Source of the DNA: Deltaproteobacteria bacterium
GTDB taxonomy: Bacteria; Desulfobacterota; Syntrophorhabdia; Syntrophorhabdales; Syntrophorhabdaceae
NCBI GenBank assembly: GCA_029777945.1
Contig: JAKORG010000044.1
Coordinates: 1-44,064, forward strand
DNA: 44,064 bases
Direction: 5' to 3'
The translations under genes were made by a program, and so were the position numbers. This document shows, one piece after another, positions 14,843-15,554 of this stretch. The first letter of the stretch is position 1. Each line of letters begins with the position of its first letter. The notes under the pieces were generated by a model that did no database searches, was not told the origin of the DNA, and saw only the letters and a program-made list of their open reading frames with translations.

Positions 14843-15074
14843 AAAAAACATTTTTTAATCTCTAAAAAAAATGCCCTGCATACCGAAGATACACAGGGCA
14901 AAGAGGGGAATAATTATTTATACGCAAATTTATATTTTAATTAATCTCAGGTAAATGATTTAGGTCACATATTTAGTTTTTTTCTTATTTAAAAAAACAA
15001 TCCAAAACCAACCCCTGAAAAAATAATTAGCTTTTAATTATATGGATAGATGTAGTATGATATATTATCAAATA
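14843..15074. other. non-coding stretch with a solitary hairpin
   Basis: No convincing gene lies between the dfx terminator and the RRM leader. TGCCCTG (14872-14878) pairs with CAGGGCA (14894-14900); in the minus direction the stem is followed by seven T, as in a terminator, yet no minus-strand gene ends here. A weak -10-like TATGAT (15056-15061) may start the RRM transcript. Confidence 0.4.
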
Positions 15075-15169
15075 GACGACTGAGCGTCGCCGTGTTTCTC
15101 CACGGGGTAGATAGAGGATGCCTCTGCTATCTCCAAAAGAAGCATGAAAAAATTAAGGAGGAGATAGTA
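15075..15169 (+). promoter_or_regulatory. structured 5' leader of the RRM gene, possible RNA switch
   Basis: Three short helices can form: GACG/CGTC (15075-15088), CCGTG/CACGG (15090-15105) and GATAG-AGG/CCT-CTATC (15110-15131). CTATCTCC (15127-15134) is also perfectly complementary to GGAGATAG (15160-15167), which overlaps the ribosome binding site; the pairing extends by a G-U and a T-A pair to the A of the start codon. The two pairings of CTATC exclude each other. This suggests on/off control by temperature, protein binding or a ligand; it is an inference from base pairing. Confidence 0.55.
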
Positions 15170-15444
15170 TGCAGGGTAGTAGATTATTTGTAGGAAATTT
15201 TAATTATTCCGTTGGGAAAGAACAGTTAAAAGAGCTCTTTTCACCTTTCGGTGAAGTATTGGACGTCAAAATCATTGAGAATAAGGGATTCGGTTTTGTA
15301 GAGATGTCAACGCAGGTGGAGGCTGAAAAGGCAAAAAAGGAACTGAACAACACATACTTTTTTGGTCGGAATATCAGTGTTGATGAGGCAAGGTCAGCAA
15401 AAAGCCAGCACAGAGGTGGAAAGAGGCCACAGAGAAGATACTAA
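15169..15444 (+). CDS. RRM-type RNA-binding protein
   Basis: A 91-residue single RNA recognition motif protein like the cold-inducible RNA-binding proteins of cyanobacteria and deltaproteobacteria. RNP2 is RLFVGNFNY near the N-terminus and RNP1 is KGFGFVEM at about 39-46; the basic tail (RGGKRPQRRY) gives extra RNA contact. GGAGG lies just before the ATG. The gene is monocistronic between its structured leader and a downstream hairpin. Autoregulation through the leader is plausible. Precise RNA targets are unknown. Confidence 0.95.
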   Translation: MQGSRLFVGNFNYSVGKEQLKELFSPFGEVLDVKIIENKGFGFVEMSTQVEAEKAKKELNNTYFFGRNISVDEARSAKSQHRGGKRPQRRY

Positions 15445-15471: not shown

Positions 15472-15505
15472 GAGATGCAGGCTTTAACCTAAATGCCTGC
15501 ATCTC
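15472..15505 (+). terminator. hairpin after the RRM gene
   Basis: GAGATGCAGGC (15472-15482) pairs with GCCTGCATCTC (15495-15505), 11 base pairs with a 12-base loop. No T-run follows, so it may be a 3' stabilising stem or a weak terminator. Confidence 0.6.
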
Positions 15506-15554
15506 CATCCATGATTGGTATTCAAAGTTTCGCACAAGGCTCTTATTTTATATA

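What the first reader, a model, noticed from the sequence alone, without database searches (positions are those of the whole stretch)
15075..15169. RNA switch candidate before the RRM gene
CTATCTCC can pair with an upstream GATAG-AGG arm or, perfectly over eight bases, with GGAGATAG at the ribosome binding site; the latter pairing reaches the start codon. Cold-shock-type RRM proteins are good targets for thermal or autogenous control.
Basis: partly seen in the sequence, partly recalled or inferred. Interest (0 to 1): 0.7.

Follow-up and report, generated by a model that had tools for sequence, protein, structure and literature searches.

The report
Conserved RNA leader before RRM gene
The stretch just before a small RNA-binding-protein gene folds into a conserved RNA hairpin, found in front of the same gene in many related bacteria, that can trade its own pairing for pairing with the ribosome landing site, so it probably lets the cell adjust (perhaps self-limit) how much of that protein is made.

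Summary
CTATCTCC (15127-15134) is complementary over 8 bases to GGAGATAG (15160-15167), extending to 10 bp that reach the A of the start codon. Orthologs of this RRM gene in the same family carry the same two-helix hairpin (P1 UGUUUC/GAAGCA, P2 GGAGAUAG/CUAUCUCC) 19-34 nt before the start codon, and a longer homologous form precedes RRM genes in other families of the phylum. Covariance models find it essentially only in front of RRM genes; no Rfam 15 family matches. G-U pairs and compensatory changes show that it acts as RNA on this strand. The competing pairing with the ribosome-binding site exceeds shuffled controls overall and is strong in about a third of genera, including this one, but is weak in others and does not covary locus by locus. 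Predicted accessibility of the site hardly changes with temperature, so a thermometer is not supported. Best reading: an apparently undescribed cis-regulatory leader controlling translation of the RRM gene by occluding or freeing the ribosome site, with the RRM protein itself as the most likely (untested) effector.

The parts
15032..15061 (+). likely sigma-70 promoter (TTTTAA - 18 nt - TATGAT; or TTTAAT - 17 nt - TATGAT); transcription would start near 15069
   Evidence: TATGAT(A) preceded by a TTTCAA/TTGTCAA-like box lies at the equivalent place in several orthologs; the consensus scanner did not call it, so inferred
15075..15088 (+). small 5' hairpin GACG-ACTGAG-CGTC, specific to this genome
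   Evidence: MFE; not seen in relatives
15091..15099 (+). P1, 5' strand (CGUGUUUCU; conserved UGUUUC)
   Evidence: MFE and homologs; model R1 match 15088-15149, 53.4 bits (the window sequence was one of nine used to build R1)
15104..15117 (+). P2, 5' strand: GGGGUAG (conserved partner of CUAUCUC), bulged A, UAGAGG (local extension)
   Evidence: MFE and alignment A2
15121..15134 (+). P2, 3' strand: CCUCUG + CUAUCUCC; 15125-15134 is also the anti-ribosome-site arm
   Evidence: CUAUCUCC nearly invariant in close relatives
15138..15146 (+). P1, 3' strand (AGAAGCAUG)
   Evidence: MFE and homologs
15155..15169 (+). ribosome-binding site AAGGAGGAGATAGT and first base of the start codon; 15160-15169 pairs with 15125-15134 in the alternative state
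15169..15444 (+). RRM protein gene, 91 aa, single RRM plus basic tail; the only such gene found in this genome
   Evidence: Pfam RRM_1 E 3e-21; one match in the genome

Best explanation
The region is a conserved cis-regulatory RNA leader of the RRM gene. The first-transcribed part folds into a two-helix hairpin (P1 closing, P2 apical) that keeps the CUAUCUCC arm busy and leaves the ribosome site free (on state). When P2 is opened or fails to form, that arm pairs with GGAGAUAG and the bases up to the AUG and blocks initiation (off state), either with P1 opened or, as a pseudoknot, with P1 kept. The most likely agent that shifts the balance is the RRM protein itself, binding the conserved leader when in excess (negative autoregulation). 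Shown: conserved hairpin, near-exclusive association with RRM genes, available alternative pairing. Inferred: that the two states control translation, and that the protein is the effector.
For: Two-helix hairpin in orthologs of the family, most of them folding to it on their own. R1 search of 46 order genomes: 23 hit, one place each, each just upstream of an RRM ortholog and none in genomes lacking the gene. R2, built from other families, hits 26 places in 395 phylum genomes, 24 directly upstream of an RRM gene; eight of these were not used to build it, and L124 and L128 were found by the RNA model alone. R2 also finds the family form L022 at E 2e-4, so the two forms look homologous. Both helices stay paired in about 95% of cells, with more compensatory changes than all or nearly all shuffles (9 vs 2.9 cells, 0/500; 5 vs 1.7, 1/500). 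About a fifth of P1 cells are G-U in the sense strand and would be A-C mismatches in the antisense strand, so the RNA acts on this strand. RBS complementarity of the hairpin exceeds dinucleotide shuffles over 25 genera (mean z -1.15, p 5e-4), with 7-10 bp helices in g1, g8, g9, g11, g12, g44. A hairpin restricted to one gene family that makes an RNA-binding protein fits autogenous control; the Bacteroides RRM protein RbpB crosslinks to its own mRNA (PMC11697453).
Against: Exchanging ribosome sites between genera does not weaken the pairing on average (Wilcoxon p 0.69), so locus-by-locus covariation of the off state is not demonstrated. Several genera (g6, g30, g134, L023) have no good off pairing. 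P2 itself uses GGAG/CUCC-type sequence, so an anti-SD sequence could be a by-product. Some RRM orthologs lack the leader (L028, L074, L076, L083-L086, L091, L102, L104). No binding or expression data.
Confidence: 0.5

Rival explanations
1. The conserved hairpin is a protein-binding or mRNA-stability element of the RRM mRNA (for example a site for the RRM protein or for an RNase) and acts without an alternative pairing to the ribosome site; the complementarity to the SD is a by-product of P2 using GGAG/CUCC-type sequence.
For: P1 and P2 are conserved in the carriers while off pairing is weak in g6, g30, g134, L023; the RBS swap test is negative; P1 varies mainly by single-sided steps that keep G-U pairs, with the U positions of the 5' strand (UUUAAUAAUG) well kept.
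Against: Complementarity to the RBS exceeds composition-matched shuffles and runs beyond the SD core in several genera (GGAGAUAG, GGAGGUAG, UGGAGGUA); in L027 arm and RBS differ together and still match.
Confidence: 0.3
2. RNA thermometer or cold-shock switch: temperature alone shifts the leader between on and off, as proposed by the first reader and as in the cspA leader.
For: Energies of the two states are close in many leaders; the RRM protein Rbp1 of a cyanobacterium is needed in the cold (PMC9333190 abstract), and cspA mRNA has a cis thermosensor (PMC9947658 abstract).
Against: Predicted SD accessibility is flat from 10 to 45 C in 16 of 24 leaders and moves in both directions in the rest; P1 and SD pairing show no common temperature trend. 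Nearest-neighbour predictions at low temperature are rough.
Confidence: 0.1
3. Metabolite riboswitch: the variable apical region or the internal loop binds a small molecule.
For: A partly conserved internal loop and a GCUAUCUUG-like apical segment in part of the phylum set.
Against: Only RRM genes carry it, there is no metabolic target gene; no large invariant pocket of the kind usual for riboswitches; the apical part varies greatly in length.
Confidence: 0.05
4. DNA operator: the inverted repeat is a binding site for a transcription factor, not an RNA structure.
For: P1 is nearly palindromic in part of the set (the antisense strand of L071 also matches R2).
Against: About a fifth of P1 pairs are G-U in the sense strand, which would break symmetry in DNA; it lies downstream of the likely promoter boxes; the arms are tens of bases apart.
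Confidence: 0.03

Closest known systems
Chlorobi-RRM motif (Rfam RF01697; Weinberg et al. 2010, PMC2864571)
   Same: A candidate cis-regulatory structured RNA named for its association with RRM genes, in another phylum (listed there as likely RNA and likely cis-regulatory).
   Different: The window and 13 related loci do not match it, nor any other Rfam 15 family above chance level; reported from Chlorobi only; its structure was not compared here beyond the covariance-model scan.
cspA 5' leader of E. coli (cis thermosensor plus CspA acting on its own mRNA; PMC9947658)
   Same: A leader of a small RNA-binding-protein gene whose fold affects ribosome binding.
   Different: CspA is a cold-shock-domain protein, not an RRM; no Rfam match links the leaders; no temperature trend is predicted here.
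Bacteroides RbpB mRNA (PMC11697453)
   Same: RRM-1 protein; its own mRNA carries a crosslinked RbpB site, suggesting autoregulation.
   Different: No conserved leader hairpin is described in the passages read; different phylum.
Ribosomal-protein-type autogenous leaders and SD-sequestering riboregulators
   Same: Would work by a mutually exclusive hairpin versus SD-anti-SD helix in a 5' leader that feeds back on the encoded RNA-binding protein.
   Different: The effector is unknown and no described Rfam leader matches.

Membership tests
Chlorobi-RRM (RF01697) | match to the Rfam covariance model | tested here: not met
   cmscan of all 4227 families, window 15030-15200 at E up to 10 and 13 loci at E up to 1: no RF01697 match
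Chlorobi-RRM (RF01697) | located upstream of an RRM gene | tested here: met
RNA thermometer (ROSE, fourU or cspA-like) | match to a described thermometer family | tested here: not met
   no Rfam match
RNA thermometer (ROSE, fourU or cspA-like) | ribosome-site accessibility changes in one direction with temperature in relatives | tested here: not met
   16 of 24 flat, 6 up, 2 down; prediction only
Autogenous translational leader of an RNA-binding protein | conserved RNA structure in the 5' leader of that gene and not elsewhere | tested here: met
Autogenous translational leader of an RNA-binding protein | alternative pairing that covers the ribosome site | tested here: inconclusive
   available and above shuffles overall, strong in about a third of genera, absent in some, no swap-test support
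Autogenous translational leader of an RNA-binding protein | the encoded protein binds the leader and represses its own translation | not testable with these tools
   needs binding and reporter assays

The most novel reading that the evidence does not exclude
A previously undescribed, phylum-wide RNA family in which an RRM protein, a class whose regulation is poorly known in bacteria, controls its own translation through a conserved hairpin that competes with (possibly pseudoknots to) its own Shine-Dalgarno sequence.
Probability: 0.4. Interest if true: 0.6.

Novelty: new variant of a known kind. Interest (0 to 1): 0.45.

Why it matters
RRM proteins are among the commonest eukaryotic RNA-binding proteins, but their regulation and RNA targets in bacteria are little known. 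A leader conserved across many families of a phylum and found essentially only at these genes gives experimenters a ready natural candidate RNA target for the protein, and a simple test of whether bacterial RRM proteins self-regulate as ribosomal proteins do.

Tried and rejected
Rfam scans: only chance-level hits (STnc250, E 0.06 when 171 nt were searched, 19.9 bits against a cut-off of 42). Copies elsewhere in the genome (a regulon): none. Thermometer: no consistent trend (in one search the SD string chosen for L017/L018 was the wrong one and the L001 fragment was short, so one search is the one to use). Upstream ORF inside the leader (ATG 15118 to stop 15147): not conserved, for example L030 lacks the ATG (sequences). 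3'UTR-RBS pairing (15495-15506 with the start region): strong in the window (-22.7 kcal/mol, p 0.01) but not conserved. First MAFFT alignments misplaced P2, so RNAalifold found little or nothing; replaced by A2, A3 and the model-based A6, A7. Phylum-level R1 matches L069 and L070 are not near an RRM gene and are taken as chance.

Full report
What is there. The window holds a 91-codon gene (15169-15444) for a single-RRM protein with a basic tail (Pfam RRM_1, E 3e-21), the only one of its kind found in this genome. About 100 nt of leader precede it. CTATCTCC (15127-15134) is complementary to GGAGATAG (15160-15167), and the match extends to 10 bp ending on the A of the start codon. Alone, the leader folds into P1 (15091-15099/15138-15146) enclosing P2 (15104-15117/15121-15133), more stable than shuffles (z -2.9).

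Conservation in the family. RRM orthologs exist in 28 of 39 family genomes. Apart from L028, their leaders carry the same arrangement: a UGUUUC-type strand, a GGAG/GAGAUAG-type strand, a CUAUCUC(C)-type strand and a GAAGCAU-type strand, placed 19-34 nt before the start. Nearly all cores fold by themselves into a P1-P2 hairpin of this kind, with a weaker or shifted P1 in L030-L032, although the proteins are only about 52-70% identical to the window's. Model R1, built from nine of them, finds 23 of 46 order genomes, one place each, always just upstream of the RRM gene. At that setting R1 misses divergent leaders such as L027, L034, L042 and L043, so 23 is a lower bound.

Conservation in the phylum. 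RRM genes of other families have a longer version: UUCUC..GUUUAAUAAUGUU - GAGAGG - variable loop - CUACCUCC - AACAUUAUURAAC..GAGAA. Model R2, built from 16 of these, finds 26 places in 395 genomes; 24 lie directly upstream of an RRM gene. One lies at a contig end (L139), and one marginal match (L133, E 0.003) has no RRM nearby. Two hits, L124 and L128, were found by the RNA model alone and proved to precede RRM genes. R2 recovers the family form L022 at E 2e-4, so the two forms appear to be one family. Some genomes carry the leader on two RRM paralogs (for example G058, G158, G095).

Evidence that it is RNA. On model-based alignments P1 is paired in 96-98% and P2 in 90-95% of cells, against 35-66% over the whole structure when the partners are slid by 1-3 columns. 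Cells with compensatory changes number 9 against 2.9 expected (0 of 500 shuffles) in the phylum set and 5 against 1.7 (1 of 500) in the family set. These alignments were fitted to the structure; alignment A3, made from sequence alone, gives the same picture (6 against 1.4, 0 of 500). Relatedness of the sequences is not corrected for in these shuffles. About a fifth of the P1 cells are G-U pairs on the coding strand (46 of about 208 in A7, 27 of about 131 in A6; my sums), which would be A-C on the other strand, so the coding-strand RNA is the selected molecule.

Is there a switch? In the window the two states differ by about 3 kcal/mol in favour of the hairpin; in L017, L024, L026 and L027 the ribosome-site pairing is the predicted minimum. 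Over 25 genera the hairpin's complementarity to its own ribosome site exceeds dinucleotide shuffles (mean z -1.15, p 5e-4, 20 of 25 negative), but swapping ribosome sites between genera makes no difference on average (p 0.69). Contiguous helices of 7 bp or more made by the conserved CUCC arm occur in g1, g8, g9, g11, g12 and g44, plus a bulged one in g49; they are weak or missing in g6, g30, g134 and L023. In L027 arm and ribosome site both differ and still match over 8 bp. The off state is therefore plausible and probably real in the window's own branch, but not proven for the whole family. Because P1 encloses the arm, the off state either opens P1 or forms a pseudoknot; the secondary-structure programs used here cannot decide.

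Effector. The leader has essentially no target other than RRM genes. The simplest effector is the RRM protein; precedents are the RbpB crosslink on its own mRNA (PMC11697453) and CspA acting on its own mRNA (PMC9947658 abstract). A thermometer is not supported by the predicted temperature profiles. A metabolite is unlikely given the target.

Known or new. No Rfam 15 family matches the window region at E up to 10 other than chance-level hits. Of 13 related loci scanned at E up to 1, three gave only chance-level hits well below the gathering scores. The nearest known kind is the Chlorobi-RRM motif (PMC2864571), which the covariance models do not connect with this one. Literature searches for an RRM-gene leader in related bacteria found nothing, within an open-access library only. 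The genomes in the collection are unnamed, so the phylum could not be named.

Noticed in passing
window 14872-14900, - strand: A strong intrinsic-terminator-like hairpin with eight T on the minus strand, with no obvious minus-strand gene ending there; it could end a small RNA or antisense transcript.
   Followed up: no
window 15472-15505: An 11-bp inverted repeat after the RRM gene whose 3' arm (CCTGCATCTCC) complements the ribosome site and start codon with a 5-nt bulge; not conserved in relatives.
   Followed up: partly
L033:1812-2246 and L044:1709-1987: In relatives the RRM gene is followed by an FKBP-type peptidyl-prolyl isomerase or by a ribosomal protein S21 gene, whereas in the window an ArsR-type regulator follows.
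   Followed up: partly
L081, L082, L100, L103: In genus g49 an extra strong hairpin (CCCCGTTAG...AACGGGG type) is inserted between the leader and the ribosome site.
   Followed up: no
L044, L045: In family f3 the leader looks differently laid out: UCUGUUU/AAACAGA outer pairing and a CAGUU-type arm that could pair with either GAGACUG nearby or the ribosome site GGGGGCUGUG / GGGAGGCUG.
   Followed up: partly
alignment A3/A7, loop of P2: Several families share a GCUAUCUUG segment in the apical loop; in L071 and L088 it can pair with the ribosome site.
   Followed up: partly
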